From: Cystobasidiopsis lactophilus | Taxonomy: Eukaryota; Basidiomycota; Agaricostilbomycetes; Agaricostilbales; Chionosphaeraceae | NCBI GenBank assembly: GCA_001599975.1 | Contig: BCIO01000002.1 | Coordinates: 744,001 to 808,000 of the forward strand | Direction: 5' to 3' | Length of the DNA: 64,000 nt | Shown here: piece by piece, positions 24,003-38,060 of the stretch | Layout of the letters: every line of letters begins with the position of its first letter | Numbering within the stretch: the stretch's first letter is position 1 | Notes under the pieces: generated by a model | The model's database searches: none | What the model was told of the DNA's origin: nothing | What the model saw: the letters and a program-made list of their open reading frames with translations, nothing else | Program-made: the position numbers and the translations under genes

Positions 24003-24700
24003 ATGAAGCTGCTTTCGACCAGCGCCTTACTCGGGTCCGCCCTCGCTCTCACCGCCCTGGCCGAGCAGAATCTAGACAATCCGCTCTGGGCTTGTCCTCA
24101 GAACGTAAGCGTGCCTTTCTTGAGCTCGGGAAGAGTCTTGGCTGACGCACAAATATCGAAAACAGCCGGAGCTCTGCGTAAGTTGGATTTGCCACCGCTC
24201 ACGCCCAGGGCTCAAGAACAGTTTCTGCGCTTTGTTCACAGGTCGCCTATAGCTATAATGGCGCAGGAGCAACAGCCGTCGCCAAGGTACCCGACCCTGC
24301 TGTTCCGACAGTTGTGGCGACCACTGCAACCCTAGTCCCGACCGGTTCCCTCACCGCGGCGCCGACTGGCCCTGATGTCGTCCCAACCGGCACCAACATC
24401 TCGGACACCTCGCTGCCGACAGGCAATGGCACGAACACGACGTTGCCGACTGGGAGCGGGGGCCTCAATGACACGGCGCCGACTGGGACGGAGACAGGCG
24501 ACCTGGGCAACCTCAGCGCCACCGCCACCGGCAATAACTCGATCATCTCCGGCGGCTTCTCCTCCACCGGCTCCTCCTCCGCCTCATCTCACACCTCCTC
24601 GGGCCTCAAGAGCCTCAGCAGCTCGGCCCGCTCGCTCGCCTTGGAGCTGTCCTTCCCCTTGTTGCTCGCCATCTTCGTCCTCGTCGCCTTCCGCCAATGA
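24003..24700 (+). CDS. Secreted Ser/Thr-rich PTG-repeat protein, probable GPI anchor
   Basis: Predicted wall or plasma-membrane surface protein. A signal peptide (MKLLSTSALLGSALALTALA) is followed by EQNLDNPLWACPQN. The next exon appears to be only 12 nt (24166-24177, Pro-Glu-Leu-Cys), flanked by introns 24105-24165 and 24178-24241, and is joined in phase 0 to VAYSYNGAG. This creates a paired-Cys motif ACPQNPELC. The rest is Thr/Ser/Gly-rich with about seven spaced PTG triplets and several N-glycosylation sequons (NIS, NTT, NDT, NLS). It ends in a Ser tract and the hydrophobic tail ELSFPLLLAIFVLVAF, as expected for GPI attachment. It resembles the downstream array in general design but lacks that family's core motif. 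Confidence 0.75.
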
Positions 24701-24958: not shown

Positions 24959-25439
24959 TTAGAATTCGATCTCGTTGATGGGGTCCGCCCTGACCTCGCT
25001 CAGGTCAATCTTGGCGTCTTCCTCTACGTCCAGTTCCCCGACCAGTGCTCTGTACATGACGGACGGCTGAGTGAGCACAGATCCAATTGCTCGAAAGGCG
25101 GCCGAGAACGTACACATTGTCTCCTCTGACGATGTAAAGCCCCAGCGGCTGCTCCTCCGCCCCTTCGTCCGCGCTGAAGATGCGCTCGATGGTGTCCGAC
25201 AAGATGCAGTTGCCCGTTTGGTCGAAGCCGACCAGGTTGCCCTGTGGAGGGAGCACCACACGAAAATTATTATGCGGCTGGCTGCTGAGCAGGGGATGGG
25301 CACTCACAACTAGACACCGGCCATCGTAGGTGAGCAAAAAGACTTTTTCTGTACGTCAAAGTCCCACATCAGCACTGGAACGATACAGATGAAGCAGAGA
25401 GCGAGCCGCACTGTCAACGTAGGGCGTCAAGCCAGACAT
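24959..25439 (-). CDS. LSM8: LSM8, U6 snRNA-associated Sm-like protein
   Basis: Subunit of the nuclear Lsm2-8 ring that binds the 3' end of U6 snRNA in splicing. The ATG at 25439 starts a ten-codon exon (MSGLTPYVD). Splicing in phase 1 over about 70 nt yields D-KKVFLLTYDGRCLVV, then GNLVGFDQTGNCILSDTIERIF (Sm1 motif), QPLGLYIVRGDNV (Sm2 motif) and the tail DLSEVRADPINEIEF with stop at 24959. Length, order and the LYIVRGDNV signature match LSM8 rather than LSM1. It has three introns, one of them right after the GDNV motif. Confidence 0.9.
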
Positions 25440-25724: not shown

Positions 25725-26428
25725 TCAGAGCACCATCATGGCGCTCGCCACCGCCACCAACAAGATGCCACCCAAGCCCACTGCGCTTCCACCGTAGAGT
25801 AAGGAGGTGGACGAGGAAGACTGGGAGGAGGTGGACGACTTGGACGTGGTGGTCAAAGGCGGCAAAGTGGTGGGCGTGGCGGCCACCAGCTCAAAGGTCG
25901 TGCGCACCGTCTCGACCGAGGTAGTCGGGCTCGAGAGGCCAGCGTCCACTGTGCTCCGCCATTATTAATGAGCCTGGAAGGCATTGGGTGCTATGGAAAA
26001 CTCACCCTGGCAGTCGCCCACCGCTCCGTCCATCTTGCACGCGTAGTGGAAATTGATCATCTCCTCGTCCACCCTCACGTCCAAAGTCGACGGGCCCTGC
26101 ACCAAGGTGGCTCTGTGGCCTTCGAGGAAGCGGGCCGTGGTAGGGCCAGTGGCTTTAGGCGTCTCGGTGCCCGCGCCAATGATGTAGGTAGTTCCGTCCG
26201 CTCCCTGTTATCGCATTGAGCACTCCGAATCAGAGGATTGAAATTCAGCTCACCGTTCCGATGGCCTGGGCGTAGTAGTCGCCCTCTTCCATAAATCCGG
26301 GCTAGAGCCGACGTTTTCAGAACCTGTCAAGGGACGGATGGGACAGCACACACCTTGAAGAGCGACAGGGCAGGGGCAGCAGCAGCCATTCCAGTCAAGA
26401 GGGAGAAGACGATCAAGGAGGCGTGCAT
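25725..26428 (-). CDS. Array family member A: secreted GPI-type protein
   Basis: Small surface protein of unknown function and the first member of an eight-gene array. The ATG at 26428 gives a signal peptide MHASLIVFSLLTGMAAAAP. After introns come DYYAQAIGT-GADGTTYIIGAG, RATLVQGPSTLDVRV and a two-Cys segment C-KMDGAVGDC, the core seen in all members. A Ser/Thr-rich stalk ends in a hydrophobic tail, YGGSAVGLGGILLVAVASAM, fitting a GPI signal. The core is most like member D. No catalytic motif is visible, and the family is not one I recognise. Confidence 0.75.
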
Positions 26429-27175
26429 TTTGGGTGGTGGACGATGGGTTTTCTGGACGGGAGGGAAAGAAAGGAAATCATCGCGAGACACTGGGGAAGC
26501 ACGCGGTTCGTCAAATCTGGGTTCTAGCGCATCGTACAGCCACAATTCTGCCACGTCGGCAGGTCCGTTGAATGGTCAGACTGTTGATGGCGTTAGCCTT
26601 CGGTTTCGGGAAGGGCCAGTCAGTGCGCTCCTGCCTTCAAACACGTCCAAGGTGGCGGTGACAGAGCTCTAAAACTTCGACTACTGGGTTCGAGAAGAAG
26701 AACGATCCAATTCTGAAGGCCGTCCCGCGACGGGGTTGACGAAGTCGGCCCTCATCGCCTCAGCCTATAGCCATAGCGGGGAGGAAGCGAGGAAGCCAAA
26801 AGACCAGAGCGAGAATGAGGGCAACAAGATCAAAGCCGGATGGCTCATGAAGCAATGCACAACATGGGCAGAGCAAGTTACAAGATTGGGTGGTGGGCGA
26901 GGACTGAGAAGCCAAAAAACGACGAAATGGCCCAGAGGCTCTGGAAGAATTGGAATGCTTTGCATTGAACGAATGAATTGTGTGAAGAGCCACTAGGGAA
27001 GTAAAAAAGGAATGTCTGCGCTATAGAACGATTGTCCGTGCCCGAGGTCGTCGCCACCATCACAGCCTGTCGAGTCCACAAAATGCGCCACCGTGGCAAC
27101 TCAGATCCCCAAAATCCACCACACCAACAACTGCAAGGAGAAAAGAATCGTCCGTGCGAGAAAGAACGACAGAGG
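26429..27175. other. Intergenic in array; start of tandem unit 1
   Basis: No gene. From about 26655 the sequence is similar to that from about 28921, which marks the left edge of the first copy of the duplicated module. Forward frames here are not protein-like. Confidence 0.6.
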
Positions 27176-27877
27176 CTAGAGGAGAAAAGCGGCCAGGACC
27201 GATGAAGCCACAGCCAGAGCACTGAGTCGAAGACCAGTGCCGTCAGAAGTGGCGCTGGTAGAGGTAGTGGTCACAGCTTTGACGGGCGTGAAGTTGGGGA
27301 AGTGCGTCGGAGTGACAGGGAGGCGCTCGTCGAAGGCGATTCGGGTTGGGCGCGCCTTCACTGTCCCTTGATCTGGTCCGACTGTCGATAGATTAGCACA
27401 CAGTATGGTCAGTGAATGAAAGGGAAACACACCACATTCGCCGACGTTCCCATTCAGTGAACAATGCAAGTCGACATCCACAACAGAGTCTCGGGCCTGA
27501 ATGTCCAGATGGCGAAACCCTTGGACGACTGTTGCTGTTACCGTATGCCCCCCTTGCAATACAACTCCTCCATCAGAAGCGGCGGGTGTGACCGCCTCGA
27601 CCAACCAAGTCGTGTCCTGCCCGTTGGCCCCCTGTTCCGCTCTTCTGCTTCAGCACCCAAACCCCAAACAGCACAAGACGGCATGCACGCACTGTCCCAA
27701 CGGCTTCAACGAAATGATTGCCTGCGGTAAGGACCGAAGGCTGCAAAGGCGCAAGTAGATCCTGGTCAGAGGCGCGCTCGACCAAGGCAAACAAACATCG
27801 CTCACCAAATACAAGGGCGTTGTGTAAGTGGCAGCGGACAGTGCTACGAAGGAAGCGAACAGCAGTGACCTGAGCAT
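27176..27877 (-). CDS. Array family member B: secreted GPI-type protein
   Basis: The signal peptide from 27877 is MLRSLLFASFVALSAATYTT. Middle exons carry the family motif in a variant form, HFVEAVGT then a Gln-Asp-Thr-Thr-Trp-Leu segment, followed by VVLQGGHTVTATVVQGFRHL and the Cys pair C-SLNGNVGEC. The C-terminal part, PTHFPNFTPVKAV, Ser/Thr stalk and hydrophobic LRLSALAVASSVLAAFLL, ends at 27176 with no charged residue after the hydrophobic run, as in GPI precursors. Its nearest relative is member B' at 29450-30149, with near-identical layout. Confidence 0.75.
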
Positions 27878-28413
27878 GGTCAACGCGTAGTTGAGAGTGA
27901 GGAGCACTGGGGAGGGATGGGGAGCGCGTAAGGCAGCCGATGAGACAATCGTTTCTGAGCAAGAAAACATGGAGGGCGGTGTGCACGCCAAAAAGTCTTT
28001 TGGACACAGCCTCTCCAGAAAGACGTTTGAACTCCAGGCCATCTGTTAGCGAATATGCTAACGCCCATACCCATTCGCTAATACATAAGGTTTGCGATGC
28101 GCATGTATTTGGACCGACGATTCCGCCGAAAAGAAGCCGGTTGACCTCTCCATCAAAGCCGGTCTCTAGAACGACGCCAAAGAGAGCGATCCAAAGCGTC
28201 GTGTAAGCGACAATTACATTATCGAGAACCGGAGAAGATCGGCTCCAAGCGAGAGCATGAAATGAGAAACGTTGACACAAGAGGCCAATAAGGCCCTCGT
28301 CCTCGTTCTCGCACCAGAGCAACCATCACCGGTGTATCATTGGTGGAAAGAAAGAAGGTAGTCGGCAGTAAGAAAGGTGAATCCACTGTCTGTGAGCAGG
28401 AAAGAAAGGGAGT
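27878..28413. other. Spacer between members B and C
   Basis: No gene seen. It is related to the B'-D spacer 30150-30661, for example the shared AGAAAGACGTTTGAACTCC. It should contain the promoter of member B. Confidence 0.5.
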
Positions 28414-28936
28414 TTAAGCCTGAAGAGTCGTCAACGAGCCCACCATCAGCACCATCAACAAGCCACACAAACCGAGAGCAAGCTCGCTAGAGGACAGAGC
28501 AGAAGACAAAAAGGACGAGGAAGAGTGAAGGGGGAGCCCATGGTCTGATTGGCATCCCACTTGAACAAACAGTTGGTTTGGCGAGATTTCGTTGCGCCAA
28601 AAATCACTGTTGTGCCAGCGATACCCGCCTTGACGAGGTTCGGGATGCCGGATATCGTTCCTTGCAGAGCCAAATTCAGCTTGCGACCTTTGTACGCAAT
28701 CAAGCTGCCGCTCACCATCACAAGCTCCAACCGACCCGCTCATGGAGCAGTCTTGCCCGTATCGTAAGATGAGTCGGAGACTTGCATCTCGAGGTGTGTT
28801 GGCCCTTGCGCAACAGTGGCCGTATGCCATCCGGCGAGGGCATTGCCAGTTGCTGGGCAGTCGCGGGCGCGCCTATCAGGAACGTCGTTTCGTTCTCGTC
28901 TTGGTCCTGGGCGACACTTGTAGGTGACAGAGCCAT
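28414..28936 (-). pseudogene. Array family member C: decayed copy of member D
   Basis: Aligns with member D over its second and third exons and the stalk (DGERQLDC, SGIPNLVKAGIAGTTV, KWDANQTMGSP, LHSSSSFLSSALSS). Compared with D it has lost a base near 28847, so the frame shifts in the motif region. It has lost another near 28531, between the TMGSP and LHSSSS segments. A block around 28755 is rearranged. Homology stops inside the intron after exon 1, so there is no signal-peptide exon. It is best called a pseudogene produced by the same duplication that made unit 2, unless it is spliced unusually. Confidence 0.75.
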
Positions 28937-29449
28937 AAGACTTCGACTACTGGGCTGGGAAGAAGAACGATCCAGTCCTGGCGGCTATCGCGAGAGAGCC
29001 CGGAATTTGATGAAGTCGGCCTTCAAGATTGATTTTCGTCGCCTCAGCCGAAGGGAGACAGCCAGGGAGTCAAAGAACCAGAGCAATAATGGGAGCAGCA
29101 AAATTAAAGCCGTGCGTTCACGAAGAAATGCACAACGCTATTGCAGAGCAAGCAAGGTTGGGTGGCGGGCGAGGGGCAAGAACGCCGATACCAGTGGCCC
29201 GGAGGCTGCGGAATTGCAATGCTCTTCATTGAACGAATGTATTGTGTGGTTGTGTGAAGAGCCACTAGGGAAGTAAAAAAGGAATGTCTGCGCTATAGAA
29301 AGATTGTCCGTGCCCGAGGTCGTCGCCACCATCACAGCCTGTCGAGCTCACGAAGTGCGCCACCGTGGCAACCCAAATCCCCAAGATGTACCACACCACC
29401 AACTGTAAGCGAGGAAAGAAAACGTCCGTGCGAGAAAGCTCGATAAGGG
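28937..29449. other. Spacer between C and B'
   Basis: No gene. It is homologous to 26670-27175. Short open frames on both strands shift between the two copies, arguing against coding. Confidence 0.5.
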
Positions 29450-30149
29450 CTATAGGAGAAAAGCGGCCAGGACCGATGAAGCTACAGCCAGAGCGCTGAG
29501 GCGAAGACCAGCGCTGTCAGACGTGGCGCTGATAGATGTGGTTGCTACAGCGTTGACGGGGGTGAAGTTGGGGAAGTGCGTTGGAGTAACTGCGAGACGC
29601 TCGTCGAAGGCGATTCGGGTCGGGCGCGACTTCGCTGTCCCTTGATCTGGTCCGACTGTTTCTAGTTCAGCTCACAGTATGCCCAGTGAAAGATAAGGGA
29701 AACACACCACAATCACCGACGTTCCCGTTCAGCGAACAATGTAACTCGACATCCACAACAGAGTCGTGGGCCTGGACGTCCAGCTGGCGAAACCCTTGAA
29801 CGACTGTTGCTGTTACCGTATGGCCTCCTTGCAGTACGACTCCTCCATCAGAACCGGTGGGTGTGATCGCCTCGACCACCCAAGTCGTGTCTTGCCCATT
29901 GACCCCCTATTTCGGTCTTCTGCTTCAGCACCCGACCATCACAAGACGGCATGCACGCACAGTTCCAATGGCTTCAGCGAAATGCTCGCCTGCTGTGAGA
30001 AATGGAGGCTGTAGAAGCGCAGGTAAAATACTGGTCAGAGTCGCGCTCGACCAAGGGCAAAAAACACGGCTCACCAAATACAAAGGCGTCGTGTATGTGG
30101 CAGCGCACAGTGCCACGGCACAGGAAGCGACCAGAAGTGACTTGAGCAT
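29450..30149 (-). CDS. Array family member B': secreted GPI-type protein
   Basis: Sister copy of member B. Signal peptide MLKSLLVASCAVALCAATYTT from 30149; then HFAEAIGT, VVLQGGHTVTATVVQGFRQL and C-SLNGNVGDC; and a C-terminus with PTHFPNFTPVNAV, a Ser/Thr stalk and LRLSALAVASSVLAAFLL, stop at 29450. The reading frames, introns and tail are intact, so this copy looks functional. Substitutions versus B are scattered but keep the hydrophobic ends and both cysteines. Confidence 0.75.
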
Positions 30150-30661
30150 GGTCAACGCGTACTTGTGAGTGAGGAGCACTGGGAGGGATAGGGACGCAGG
30201 CAGCAGATGAGACAATCGTTTCGGAGCAAGAAAATATGGAGGCGGTGTGCACGCCCAAAATTCTTTCGAACACAGCCTCTCCAGAAAGACGTTTGAACTC
30301 CAGGTGGTTTAGAATTGTATGTGCTAATGCCCGTACCAGTTGGCTAATACGGATTGCGACGCGCAAAGCCGGAGGATTTCGCCGAAAAGAAGCCGGTCGA
30401 CTTCGCCGTCAAAGCCACTCTCTAAGAGAACGCCAGAGAGAGAGAGATTCAAAGCTTTGTGTCAAACGACAAGGTATCCACCGAGATCGGAGAACATCGG
30501 CTCGAAGCGGGAGAATGAGAAAAGTTGACAAGAGGCTGTGACCTTCGTCCTTGTTCTCGCACTAGAACCACCATCAACGAGCTATCATTAGCAGAAAGAC
30601 AGAAGGTAGTCGGTAGCAAAGGGAGTGATTCAAATGTCCGTGAGCAGGAAAGAAAGGGAGA
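30150..30661. other. Spacer between B' and D
   Basis: No gene. It is related to 27878-28413 and presumably carries the B' promoter. Confidence 0.5.
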
Positions 30662-31376
30662 TTAAGCCTGATGTATCATCAACGAGCCCACCATCGCCAC
30701 CACCAAAAAGCCACCCAAGCCGAGAGCATGCCCGCCAGAAGACAGAGCAGAAGACAAAGAGGACGAGGAAGAGTGAAGGGGAGAGCCCATGGTCTGATTG
30801 GCATCCCACTTGGTGAACACAGTTGGTTTAGCGGGATTCTTTGTGCCAAAAGTCACTGTTGTAGTAGCGGCGCCCGCATTTACGAGGTTCGGAATGCCGG
30901 ATATCGATCCTTGAAGAGCCAAAGTCAGCTTGCGACCTTTGTGTGCAATCAAGTTGCCGCTCACCATCGCAAACTCCAACCGACCCGTCCATGGAGCAGT
31001 CGATGTCCATATTGTAAGCGGAGTCAGAAATCTGCAGTTCGAGGTGGGTCGGCCCTTGCACAAGAGTGGCCGTATGTCCGGCGAGGGCATCGCCAGTTGC
31101 CGAGGCAGTCGCAGGCGCGCCTATCAGGAACGTCGTCTCGTCTTGACCCTGTGTGATACTTGTAAAGATGAGCAGAATGGACGGCTTGAGGGGCTCACGG
31201 TTCCGATGGCTTGGGCGTAGAGGTCGCCATTCTGTCCTCCAAAAATGGGCTGTTGTCGTCGTTAAAAAAAGTGGCTGATTGGCGTTGAAGGTTAGACCTA
31301 CCACATATAGAGACATCTGGGCAACTGAAAGCCCGAAGGAGGAAGCCAGAAAGAGGGCAGAGAGGGCACGCATCAT
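30662..31376 (-). CDS. Array family member D: secreted GPI-type protein
   Basis: Tandem start codons at 31376 and 31373 lead into the signal peptide MMRALSALFLASSFGLSVAQ. Exon 2 gives DLYAQAIGT, then ETTFLIGAPATASATGDA, HTATLVQGPTHLELQI and C-SMDGSVGVC. A 55-nt or so intron (donor GTGAGC, branch GCTGAC) begins near 30973 and joins DG to SISGIPNLVNAGAATTTV in frame. The tail has a Ser-rich stalk (LHSSSSSLSSALSSGG) and a hydrophobic end, LGLGGFLVVAMVGSLM. This is the intact counterpart of decayed member C and the closest relative of member A. Confidence 0.75.
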
Positions 31377-31964
31377 GATACAGGCTGGGTTGGTGGTGGG
31401 AGAACAAGGCAGACGCGACCTGAGCTCTGCGCTCTGCTTCCTTGCCTGAAACACGTGGTGGCCAACAGGCTCATCGCCACAGCAATTCGTGCCTCTAAAC
31501 TTTGAGACGGCCTTCAATGGGCAGAAGCCGCTGAAATCGTGTGGGCCTCCATTTTGGGCGAGGGAAGGCACTCGAGCCAGCTGCCTTCCTGGCCTCACAT
31601 TTGAAGAGCGCAAGAGTCATAAGAGAGCAAAGAAGGCGCATGCAACGGTGGCGAGAGAACGGAAACGAGAACTTGAAGAGTGGCCGCCCCCTCTCTGAAT
31701 CAGATCTGCTCGGCTGTGACGCGCAAGATCTTCCAAGCAATAGAAAAGCAACTCCACGGTTCTGGTATCTGCTAAAAAGGACCTGGAACCCGAGATGAGG
31801 GCATGCGGACGGATGTCGCTCCTGCGGTCCAAAAGCTTTGTGCGGCGTCGGTGGCACTAGCATCGAAATTTTTAAGCGACTTGCAGGTGAGCCCATTCCC
31901 GTTGAGTTTCTAGAAGTACAAAGTCCAACAGCGTGATTGGACGACAGACATCGTCGTCCCACAG
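31377..31964. other. Intergenic in array
   Basis: About 590 nt with overlapping frames on both strands and none with family motifs or a signal peptide. I see no gene. Confidence 0.5.
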
Positions 31965-32623
31965 TCAGAACGCTAAGCCCAACGCCAACAGTCCTGCCAC
32001 CATCAGCCCTCCGTTGATGCACACGGTGACAGCGCCAGAAGAAGACGTGGACGTAGATGATGAGTCTTCATCTCCGGTCGAAGAGGTGGAAGAAGTGGCA
32101 TCGGTCAGAGTAGACGAGGAAGATGTTGGCGTAGGTCCGGACTTGTCGTCGAACGTCGTGAAAGTGGTCAGTGGGACATCCACGTAGACTCCAGTGACTG
32201 TAGCAGTGACTGGTCCAGGCTGTCCAGCACCTCCGCCGCTGACTGTTCAGAAGAAAATATCAGACGTTTGGCACTCTCACCAAAGCATTGAAGCTGCGAA
32301 ACTCACCAACGCACGCCGCCACGTTATCACTGAGAGAGCATTCTATCTGCTCCTGTTGACCTCCTTGACTCACTCCCGCCGAATAGTAGTCGCTTCCCAA
32401 TACGATAGTGCCGGTCACGCCCTCGTCGACGACCAGGTAAGAGGTGCCTAGACTTCCAGTGCCAATGACCTGAGCTCCTTCGACTGCAGCGCTCTCAAAC
32501 TGCAAGCGAGAGACTGTCAGGCCCGGCTTGAGGGGTCCTCGCATGTAAACTCACCCCGAAGATGGACACAGAAGCCGCAGAAGCCAGACCCAGCAGGCTC
32601 ACAATCGGCATAAGACAGTACAT
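31965..32623 (-). CDS. Array family member E: secreted GPI-type protein
   Basis: The start near 32623 opens MYCLMPIVSLLGLASAASVS, a signal peptide. The core is EGAQVIGTGSLGTSYLVVDE, then GTIVLGSDYYSAGVSQGG and ECSLSDNVAAC, matching member F strongly. An exon near 32030-32183 carries a Ser/Thr/Asp-rich stalk (about 35 residues) and the hydrophobic tail INGGLMVAGLLALGLAF. Spacing to member F is only about 200 nt, so the F stop and the E start region nearly abut. Confidence 0.75.
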
Positions 32624-32824
32624 ATCGTTCCTTGAAATAGAAAGTAGAGGTGGACGAGCAAGAGCAAGGGATGTAGAAGGCATCCGAATGTTCCACCTTC
32701 AGAAGTCGTATCAACATGCGAAGTCCTGACGTCTCGAGACACGACGTCCATTCCGTGTGTCTAGGAACAAGCCAATGCAATCCATGGTTTCAAGACCAGG
32801 ACAGAGACAGATGTTGAAACGCTG

Positions 32825-33473
32825 CTAGAAAAGACACAGAGAAACCATCCAGACGAGGCCTCCGGCGACCAACGCCACGGACTGAGTCGACATCGGCATC
32901 GCCCCCGATGAAGAAGCTGGAGATGACGCATCTCGAGCGCTAGCTGAAGATGTCGGGGAAGCCCCCTCGTCGCCGCCACCTCCGCCGCCTAGACTGGTCA
33001 GAGCCACATCGACAAAAGCGCCGGTCACAGTCTGCGTGGTGACACCAAGGTCAGAATCGGCGCCGCCAAAACTGACTGAAGCACGGATATAGCGATCAGA
33101 TCGATCCTGACAAAGACGCCAGAGGGAAAGAGCGACCTACTGACACAATTGCCAACGCTGCCCGTCAAATCGCACTCGACATCCGCCTCTGATCCTCCTC
33201 CGTTGACTCCGAGGCTGTAGTAGTCGCTCCCTTGAACAACCGTTGCAGTGGCTCCCTCTTGCTCGATCAGATAAGTGGTGCCTTTCGAGCCAGTGCCAAT
33301 GGCCTGGGCGGCGTCGGGCGTTTCGCCGGGAAGGAACTGTGCTCGATATGCAGAGGCGTCAGCTTTGTCGATTCCGTGACTACATCTGGGTGAGGACATA
33401 CGTTCAAGATCGACACAGAGGCACAATGGACAAGACTAAAGAAGGCAAGGGGGACGAGCTTGTAAACGAGCAT
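32825..33473 (-). CDS. Array family member F: secreted GPI-type protein
   Basis: The ATG at 33473 starts the signal peptide MLVYKLVPLAFFSLVHCASV. The core reads AAQAIGTGSKGTTYLIEQEG, ATATVVQGSDYYSLGVNGGG, then ECDLTGSVGNC, the clearest version of the family consensus. The C-terminus has a Gly tract (SLGGGGGGDEG), a Ser/Ala stalk and a short hydrophobic tail, VALVAGGLVWMVSLCLF. At least two introns of normal fungal size. Confidence 0.75.
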
Positions 33474-34192
33474 GTTGTTTGGCTATGGTCGCTAGATTTT
33501 CCGGAGCAAAGAGCAGGAAGAAGAGATGATGGAGGAGCAGGAGCAAGAGCAAAAGTGTCCTCGAAACATCACCTTTGCTCAGGGGCTGAGCGTCGTCGAC
33601 AAGGTACAGCCTCGTTTCAGGCGGCAGTCCTCCAACGCCTGCATGTAAGTGTAGGGACAGTCTGCGTCTGTTTTTTCGTAAGATCGTGGGTGTAAAAAAC
33701 ACGACGCGGCCAAAGCGATAAAACTTTTGAAGGGGCAACTGAGGCAGCATGACGATCGCAGCCCTTGGTTTCAAGCCTGGCGTGCTTGCCCTATCTTTTC
33801 TGACCCAGACTCGGAGAGGCCTCTTTTCGTGGATATGCACGCAACAGACCAACACGAAACGAGACGACAAAAGAGCATGACGCCCGCCAAGCGCAAATTA
33901 ATCGAGTGAAACTGGCAGGTCGCGCTTGAAGCGAATGCTGCAAGCCGATACCAAGGCCGAGTGGACGACTGAGAGCAAGCAGCAGAATGAACGCAAAGGG
34001 CAGACGGAGGACTTGAGGCTTAGCAGCCTCGCAGGCTCGCGAGGGGATCGTGGCGGAAGCTGTCCAAACTAGCTCGACGGACCCGAGAGCTCGCTCTCGC
34101 GCTATACACTTTCAGACTCATTCTGTGTATTCATGGTAAAATCTACAGAATAGAAACTATCCGTTCATAACGACGAGCGCTGAGATGCAATA
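33474..34192. other. Intergenic in array
   Basis: About 720 nt between members G and F. No family motif or convincing ORF on either strand; it probably includes the promoter of F. Confidence 0.5.
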
Positions 34193-34912
34193 TTAAGCCA
34201 AAAGAGCGATGAGGGAGGCGAGCAGTCCAGCTGCTCCCGCTCCAAGTAGTCCCGACACCCGGCCAGCACCAGACGAAGAGTGATCCCCACCAGAAGACGA
34301 GGATGATGACGTCGCAGAGTTAGTGGGAGAGTTGCCGGGCGACGAGTCGAATGTGGTGGTGCCCGCGTCCGTGGGGCCAGCAGCATCGCCAAAGCTAGTG
34401 AGAGTAGCTGGCAAAAAGGCGCCCGTGATAGTCCCCGTCGCAACGCCGGGATCGTTTGCCTGAGCGCCACCGATACTCTCTGTTGGCGAGGTTGGTGAGC
34501 TCGCCGTAGACAAATTCGAGCGACAAAAGGGCAGACGCACCGACACACGTTCCCACATTGCCATCCAGACTGCAGACCACGTCGGCGGTCATCCCGACGG
34601 CGGCGTAGTGCATCGAGACGTAGTCAGCGCCCTGCACCACCGTCGCGGTGGCTCCACCGAGGCCAGCCTCGTCAGCCGGCAGATCGGTTGGATTGGCAAC
34701 GAGGTAGGTCGTCCCGGACGGGCCTGTTCCAATGGCTTGGGCGACGAGAGGTTGGTCATCAAAGCCCGGCTGGAATCTAATCTCAGCGTCGAGGCCATTG
34801 CAAGTGGGAAGGTCCCTTGGCAGTCGGTAAGCTCACCACAAAAAGCGAAACCTGAGCCGCACACAGACCCGAGAGGGCGAACAAAAGAGTGAAATGGGAG
34901 AGAGCGTGCATT
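34193..34912 (-). CDS. Array family member G: secreted GPI-type protein
   Basis: The most upstream member. Signal peptide MHALSHFTLLFALSGLCAAQ from 34912. The core has VAQAIGTG-PSGTTYLVAN, a longer loop containing Asp/Glu and Gly, TATVVQGADYVSMHYAAV and C-SLDGNVGTC. The stalk is Ser/Thr-rich and the tail LLGAGAAGLLASLIALLA is hydrophobic to the stop at 34193. Like E and F, it lacks the extra sequence seen in A and D between core and stalk. Confidence 0.75.
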
Positions 34913-36508: not shown

Positions 36509-37591
36509 TCACCGCCAAGGCCCAAATGAAGCACCAATGTCAACCGACATGCCACGTTCCTTTGCAATAGCGCGGACATTTGACAAAGCGGCTTCGTTCA
36601 AGTCTTGGTCGTACACCTCTTGCATAGCGTTGAGGACCGCCAGCGAGGTATTCTGACCCAGCAACCAGGCTTCGATGTCTTCAAAGGAGATGACGGAGCA
36701 CCAGGTCAGGTCTAGGCTGTCCAGCTTGGCCAATCGAGGGAGCGAGAAGATGGAGGCGTCGAAGATCTGGCCATGCAGGGTGAGACTATTTAGAGTCGGG
36801 CACCTCTTCAGCAGATTGGTTCCAAAGGTGTGGTCTCCGCCATCAGGTCCGACCCAAGGATAGTGGATCTCGAGGCTTCGCAGCGAAGACGGCTTCGCCA
36901 AGACCTGGCCCACAGCTTCCAAGCTGGGCGAATTGGCCGTCGCCAGGCAGATCTCGAAGGATTCGAACGTGGAGTGTTCGAACATTGAAATAAAGGCAGG
37001 ATCACTGAGCTCGCAGGTATTGAGATGTAGGCTGCGGAGGTGAGAGAATGAAAGATGAGAAGCCTGCGAGTCGTCCTCGGGAGAGAGGCAAGAGAATTCC
37101 GACAGCGTCAGCTCTTCCAGCGTCGATGCCCATCTCTTCAAATGCGGCAGCAGGCTGCCACCAATGGAGCCAGGAGCGCCGAAAAGAGAGAAAGACTGCA
37201 GCCGGGAGACGCAGGCCAGAGCCGTCCAGAAGCGGTCGCTCGACATGCTCTCGACGTCGCGCTGGTCAATGGAAAGACATCGCAGATTGCCACAGAAAGG
37301 CGCAAGGAGGGTAAAAGGCCGGCCGGCCGTATCAGCTTCCCGAGGAAGGGCCAAGCCCAGAGCGCAGTCAACCTGGAGCCGTCGCAGGACTCGGGTTCCT
37401 GTCTCCCCGAATGCTTCCAAAGATAGGGCCAGGTTGCCAGCAGAGATGTCGTCGACCACGGCGCTTTCGTAAAGGGCGTTGAGGGAGCAGGAATTGAGCT
37501 TCTTCGAGACGAGCTGCACGGCCAACAGGCTCTCTCGGTCCAGAAGGCACGAAATCCTTAGCAGGAGCTCGGGGCTGAGTTCAGAGAGCAT
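36509..37591 (-). CDS. F-box/LRR-like protein
   Basis: Probable SCF ubiquitin-ligase adaptor. The first ATG in frame is at 37591: MLSELSPELLLRISCLLDRE, a good F-box start, followed by SLLAVQLVSKKLNSC. The remainder of the 360-residue, apparently intron-free frame is built of leucine-rich units (LRCLSIDQRD, LQSFSLFGA, LEELTLSEFSCL, LRSLHLNTCEL, LRSLEIHYPWVG, LNSLTLHGQIF, LDSLDLTWCSV). It resembles the F-box gene at 6451-7588 in design, but the sequences are not close. Confidence 0.75.
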   Translation of the reverse strand: MLSELSPELLLRISCLLDRESLLAVQLVSKKLNSCSLNALYESAVVDDISAGNLALSLEAFGETGTRVLRRLQVDCALGLALPREADTAGRPFTLLAPFCGNLRCLSIDQRDVESMSSDRFWTALACVSRLQSFSLFGAPGSIGGSLLPHLKRWASTLEELTLSEFSCLSPEDDSQASHLSFSHLRSLHLNTCELSDPAFISMFEHSTFESFEICLATANSPSLEAVGQVLAKPSSLRSLEIHYPWVGPDGGDHTFGTNLLKRCPTLNSLTLHGQIFDASIFSLPRLAKLDSLDLTWCSVISFEDIEAWLLGQNTSLAVLNAMQEVYDQDLNEAALSNVRAIAKERGMSVDIGASFGPWR

Positions 37592-38060
37592 TTCGAAAGC
37601 AGTGGTGGCTAGAAACAAGGTGGCGAATGCGGCCAGGGCCTTGCCCAGTCGAGCGAAGGGAAGGGGCAGTGCTCTCGTCTAAGGCAGTCGGAGCGCAACA
37701 CAGGCAACGAACTCTCCTGCGTCATCTCTTGTTGAACCTTCTATAACACCACCCTCCATTGGACCTGTGCGGCAGTGGCAAATCTCCACATCATGCTTCA
37801 CGATCCCGTTTCTAAGAAGAATCGCCTTCCAGGCAAAGTCGCGGGCTCAATTGAGCAGTAGGCGCTTAAGCTCTGACTATTGGGAATGCAATAGGCCAAG
37901 AGCATCCAGGAGAGAAGCATGGCTGTGATGGACGCAGAGTCGAAAGGTCGTAAAGCTGCACTCAGCGAGCCGGATCGTCTCAACGAGTGGTATGTTATTG
38001 AGCACACGGGCATAGACAGTAGTACATGGTTAGAAATGTCGCGGTAGGCGCAAAAGATGA
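37592..38060. other. Intergenic
   Basis: About 470 nt between two tandem reverse genes; no ORF, tRNA or repeat that I can support. Confidence 0.4.

What the first reader, a model, noticed from the sequence alone, without database searches (positions are those of the whole stretch)
25725..34912. Eight-gene same-strand array of an unrecognised GPI-type surface protein family
Members A, B, C, B', D, E, F and G all encode, in order: a signal peptide, a core with (A/V)QAIGTG...GTTYL(I/V), a VVQG(S/A)DY-like strand, a Cys pair around L-x-G-x-VG-x-C, a Ser/Thr stalk and a hydrophobic tail. They fill 9 kb with nothing else between them. Such arrays usually mark fast-evolving surface diversity such as adhesion, host contact or wall remodelling. 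I do not recognise the family, so it is a candidate for a new lineage-specific surface system.
Basis: partly seen in the sequence, partly recalled or inferred. Interest (0 to 1): 0.78.

Follow-up and report, generated by a model that had tools for sequence, protein, structure and literature searches.

The report
Tandem fungal surface-protein gene cluster
A fungal chromosome carries a row of related genes for small proteins that look anchored to the cell surface; the protein type is shared with many other fungi and has apparently not been studied, so this is a local expansion of a known but unexplained family rather than a new kind of system.

Summary
The array is real. On the minus strand between 34911 and 25725, seven complete spliced genes (A, B, B', D, E, F, G) share an N-terminal hydrophobic signal, a beta-strand core, an exact C-x8-C pair, a stalk, a hydrophobic tail and two introns at matching positions and phases. 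The eighth, C, is a pseudogene: a 5'-truncated, frame-broken copy of D, left by a ~2.27-kb tandem duplication that also produced the B/B' pair. One more intact copy lies on contig C4. The "unrecognised, lineage-specific" reading fails at family level: the core is homologous to a family of four Pezizomycotina classes, part of it named "GPI anchored (cell wall) protein" (shuffle control). No Pfam or NCBIfam model matched in the scans made. The expansion is particular to this genome: its eight intact copies fall on one side of a 100/100 branch. Predicted structures give an all-beta meander in a relative and in G's core exon, without a convincing PDB match. Best reading: GPI-anchored wall mannoproteins with a small beta head; ligand and phenotype unknown.

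The parts
25725..26428 (-). Gene A, 181 aa, exons 26428-26354, 26301-26254, 26204-26006, 25948-25725
   Evidence: spliced model; own-genome exon matches
27176..27877 (-). Gene B, 174 aa, exons 27877-27806, 27740-27693, 27631-27433, 27381-27176
   Evidence: spliced model; own-genome matches
28414..28922 (-). C: pseudogene, 5'-truncated copy of D (exons 3 and 4 only), frame-broken
   Evidence: (one stop inside the match at 28557-28859)
29450..30149 (-). Gene B', 175 aa, exons 30149-30075, 30008-29961, 29906-29708, 29655-29450; 87.2% CDS identity to B
30662..31376 (-). Gene D, 185 aa, exons 31376-31302, 31249-31199, 31148-30965, 30909-30662
31965..32623 (-). Gene E, 179 aa, exons 32623-32555, 32499-32307, 32242-31965
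32825..33473 (-). Gene F, 172 aa, exons 33473-33402, 33336-33141, 33075-32825
34193..34911 (-). Gene G, 196 aa, exons 34911-34837, 34769-34541, 34479-34193; shortest branch of the eight and the only copy hit by the ascomycete protein P0001
26657..28922 (.). Tandem duplication unit 1 (B plus truncated D copy C)
28923..31164 (.). Tandem duplication unit 2 (B' plus the 3' part of D)

Best explanation
A tandem expansion, with one further copy on contig C4, of a Pezizomycotina-shared and here more widely found fungal family of small GPI-type cell-surface proteins. Inferred path of each product: signal peptide to the ER; the ~110-residue core folds as an antiparallel beta meander, probably closed by a C-x8-C disulfide; the tail is swapped for a GPI anchor; the Ser/Thr part is O-mannosylated and acts as a spacer; the protein is then held at the plasma membrane or linked to wall glucan by Dfg5/Dcw1-type GH76 enzymes, which this genome encodes. 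The set gives the wall several related small heads. Shown: gene structure, homology, duplication history, predicted beta core, GH76 genes. Inferred: anchoring, glycosylation, wall linkage, disulfide. Unknown: ligand and phenotype.
For: Models with shared intron positions and phases (C4 copy by eye). N-terminal and C-terminal hydrophobic segments and C-x8-C in 8 of 8 copies. Homology: P0001 from Tricladium the only hit of the window profile (E 8.5e-5; hhalign E 5.5e-9); 23 proteins from P0001's first 145 residues; 103 from the 17-row core alignment; window profile against 46-row family profile, probability 98.8, E 8.3e-17; 85 of 95 true cores against 0 of 950 shuffles. Names 'GPI anchored (cell wall) protein' on at least 19 of 103. 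Tree: 8 copies on one side of a 100/100 branch, E+F 95/95, extra-intron copies A, B, B', D, C4 together 99/96. Structure: nine strands in P0020, six in G exon 2 in the same order and at the aligned places. GH76 matches over the cut-off at two loci.
Against: No signal-peptide or GPI predictor could be run, only hydropathy. No expression or proteomic data. Stalks of B, B', F and D are only 26-31% Ser+Thr, and D ends in five less hydrophobic residues. Ascomycete relatives have a first cysteine pair (invariant in 46 rows) that the window copies lack. The first, uncombined profile search found a single relative among 7997 scored candidates, and P0020's core found nothing in this genome, so the link rests on few direct pairs plus profiles. 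The 95 cores had been collected with profiles that included window rows or P0001.
Confidence: 0.82

Rival explanations
1. The array is a diversifying adhesin or host-contact system of the FLO/ALS/EPA kind, with each copy binding its own ligand and under selection for variety.
For: Tandem same-strand copies, deep divergence between most copies (27-47% identity to G), stalk plus tail architecture.
Against: No adhesin domain in Pfam scans of the 7 members; proteins are short (172-196 aa) with short stalks (50-78 residues); the only measurable pair is constrained.
Confidence: 0.15
2. Redundant structural wall mannoproteins: spacers and coat proteins without a specific ligand, kept for dosage.
For: Small heads, glycan-type stalks, copy-number change still going on (B/B' and pseudogene C). 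In the A. fumigatus GPI-protein deletion library, passages of PMC9960506 say that only one of the unknown-function members affected growth; whether that library holds a member of this family was not checked.
Against: The core is conserved across classes in its strands and cysteines, more than a bare spacer would need.
Confidence: 0.4
3. The head is a small barrel that binds a ligand (calycin-like, as in avidins, lipocalins and fatty-acid-binding proteins), used for capture of a sugar, lipid or cofactor at the surface.
For: Both models are all-beta meanders; the weak PDB lists hold many avidins and retinol/fatty-acid-binding proteins and lipocalin-like lipoproteins.
Confidence: 0.2
4. The similarity to the ascomycete proteins is only shared composition of short secreted Ser/Thr proteins.
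For: Identity is low (about 33-42% over the core for most) and low-complexity tails are common to both.
Against: Core-only profile without signal and stalk: 85 of 95 against 0 of 950 shuffles; alignment runs through the cysteines and to the strand after them; strands agree.
Confidence: 0.03

Closest known systems
Pezizomycotina proteins named 'GPI anchored (cell wall) protein' (e.g. Tricladium P0001, Hyaloscypha P0020, Lachnellula P0013, Aspergillus P0060)
   Same: Signal, VSLF-PG strand, TTY strand, C-x8-10-C stretch, G-x-N-x-PG-x-x-T strand, Ser/Thr tail, hydrophobic end
   Different: Relatives have a further cysteine pair (C54, C60 of P0020) that the window copies lack; the window genome has at least eight intact copies, seven in one array, while I did not count copies per relative genome
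FLO/ALS/EPA adhesin families (recalled, not fetched)
   Same: Clustered GPI-type surface genes with Ser/Thr-rich parts
   Different: No matching domain in Pfam scans, far shorter proteins
Calycin-type barrels: avidins, FABP, lipocalins
   Same: All-beta meander in the predicted models
   Different: Only weak fold matches, no sequence match; the single A1 profile hits in PDB, 6gxs and 5flv, are a short stretch of 21 residues (E 0.0033) and E 0.61

Membership tests
Family of Pezizomycotina 'GPI anchored (cell wall) proteins' | Core profile similarity along the whole core | tested here: met
Family of Pezizomycotina 'GPI anchored (cell wall) proteins' | Second cysteine pair and the strands around it | tested here: met
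   invariant in 17 of 17 rows and 53 of 53 rows
Ascomycete subfamily within it | First cysteine pair (QC..DCG) | tested here: not met
   present in 46 of 46 rows, absent in the 8 copies of this genome: they are a sister branch, not members of this subfamily
Fungal GPI-anchored proteins | N-terminal signal and C-terminal hydrophobic tail | tested here: met
   hydropathy only, 8 of 8 copies; no predictor was at hand
Fungal GPI-anchored proteins | Omega-site processing and attachment to GPI or wall glucan | not testable with these tools
   needs biochemistry
FLO/ALS/EPA-type adhesins | Named adhesin domain | tested here: not met
   no Pfam match for 7 of 7 members apart from two chance-level ones, E 0.15 and 0.49
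Calycin-like barrel | Closed up-and-down barrel | tested here: inconclusive

The most novel reading that the evidence does not exclude
An undescribed, fungus-wide domain family: a small surface-displayed beta barrel that binds a ligand, older than the split between this fungus and Pezizomycotina, and in this genome expanded into a set of heads with separate ligands.
Probability: 0.15. Interest if true: 0.55.

Novelty: new member of a known kind. Interest (0 to 1): 0.3.

Why it matters
It turns a claim of a new system into a testable family: a conserved small domain that no model of Pfam or NCBIfam named in the scans made here, present in four ascomycete classes and expanded in this genome. The cluster shows stepwise tandem growth with a young duplicate and a dead copy, a handy case for how wall-protein sets grow. 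Building a domain model would let many 'hypothetical' and 'GPI anchored' proteins be named together.

Tried and rejected
Rejected: eight intact genes (C is a pseudogene). Rejected: a family confined to this lineage. Rejected as chance: PDB profile hits 6gxs and 5flv; Pfam DUF1180 and MGC-24; NCBIfam serine-rich and alpha-amylase models at E 0.05-0.4.

Full report
What is there. The window lies in a 22.1-Mb fungal genome of 8 contigs. Between 34911 and 25725 on the minus strand, seven genes can be spliced into full reading frames (A, B, B', D, E, F, G; 172-196 aa). All introns are GT..AG and 49-67 bp long. An intron of phase 0 follows the first core strand, and one of phase 1 follows the second cysteine, in all seven; A, B, B' and D have an extra phase-0 intron inside QAIGT|G. 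The proteins align over the core with G-T-G, T, C and C columns invariant. Each has a hydrophobic N-terminus, C-x8-C, a stalk of 50-78 residues and a hydrophobic tail.

The eighth member is dead. A repeat scan and BLAST show two units, 26657-28922 and 28923-31164, 80.9% identical over 2315 columns. The junction falls inside the copied D, so C has only exons 3 and 4. It shows gaps that change the frame against D, a stop inside its best protein match and at least one stop in each frame of 28922-28700 (that stretch takes in a few bases of flanking intron). The B/B' pair made by the same event is 87.2% identical in coding DNA, with introns at 82-89% and intergenic DNA at about 86%. dN/dS is about 0.24 (NG86) or 0.37 (YN00), so both copies look constrained; exon 2 is the least alike (75%).

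Elsewhere in the genome. Searches with G, D, F, B and A cores find the array and one more locus, contig C4 near 114.5 kb. Read by eye it is an intact gene of 209 aa with the same three introns as D. These searches score only the best candidates, so more distant copies may exist.

Relatives. The profile of the seven proteins found one protein, P0001 of Tricladium varicosporioides (Helotiales), E 8.5e-5 among 7997 scored candidates. hhalign gives E 5.5e-9. P0001's first 145 residues find 23 proteins, and a 17-row core alignment finds 103 among 2819 candidates. Named hits include Pseudogymnoascus, Aspergillus, Paecilomyces, Fusarium, Epicoccum and Chaetomium; four species were looked up and belong to Leotiomycetes, Eurotiomycetes, Dothideomycetes and Sordariomycetes. 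At least 19 of the 103 carry a name with 'GPI anchored' in the cut listing. No precomputed Pfam domain is shown for any listed row, and scans of the 7 window proteins (Pfam), 5 relatives (Pfam) and 4 relatives plus G (NCBIfam) give nothing above chance level.

Controls. A core-only profile of the eight copies of this genome, without signal and most of the stalk, matches 85 of 95 relatives' cores (95 of 114 found proteins, chosen by length 150-300) at E<=1e-3, and 0 of 950 shuffled cores; 10 of 95 fail that level. The relatives had been found with profiles that included window rows or P0001, so this tests residue order, not independent discovery. Profile against profile, E is 8.3e-17. Turned round, P0001's core hits only G's two large exons in the whole genome, weakly (E 0.003 and 0.03), and P0020's core hits nothing.

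History. In a tree of the eight copies and 20 of the 114 found proteins, the eight lie on one side of a 100/100 branch; the root is not known. G has the shortest branch, E and F pair (95/95), and A, B, B', D and the C4 copy, which are those with the extra intron, group at 99/96. That intron was therefore probably gained or lost once. G, at one end of the array, best keeps the shared form; from there growth by tandem copying is the simplest account.

How it likely works. Signal, tail and stalk point to export, GPI anchoring and O-mannosylation; GH76 genes of the Dfg5/Dcw1 type, which link GPI proteins to the wall (abstract of PMC7902864 and PMC3372484 in the listing), occur at two loci. The small head is the conserved part and should carry the function, either a wall-building role or binding. 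Neither was testable here.

Verdict. What is particular to this genome is the expansion.

Noticed in passing
window 24003-24700 (+): Next to A, on the other strand, two overlapping open frames suggest another spliced Ser/Thr-rich protein with signal-like start and hydrophobic end; no Pfam match. It looks GPI-type but of a different family.
   Followed up: partly
window 25008-25355 (-): LSM-domain gene directly downstream of A (Pfam LSM, E 3.1e-10), which marks one end of the array.
   Followed up: partly
window 36512-37678 (-): F-box/LRR-like protein upstream of G; matches are below Pfam's cut-offs.
   Followed up: no
L011 1229-2047 (G000 contig C4 near 114.5 kb): Dispersed intact copy of the family with the extra intron, closest to D.
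   Followed up: yes
introns of A, B, B', D and the C4 copy inside QAIGT|G: An extra phase-0 intron separates two subgroups and agrees with the tree; gain or loss could not be told apart.
   Followed up: partly
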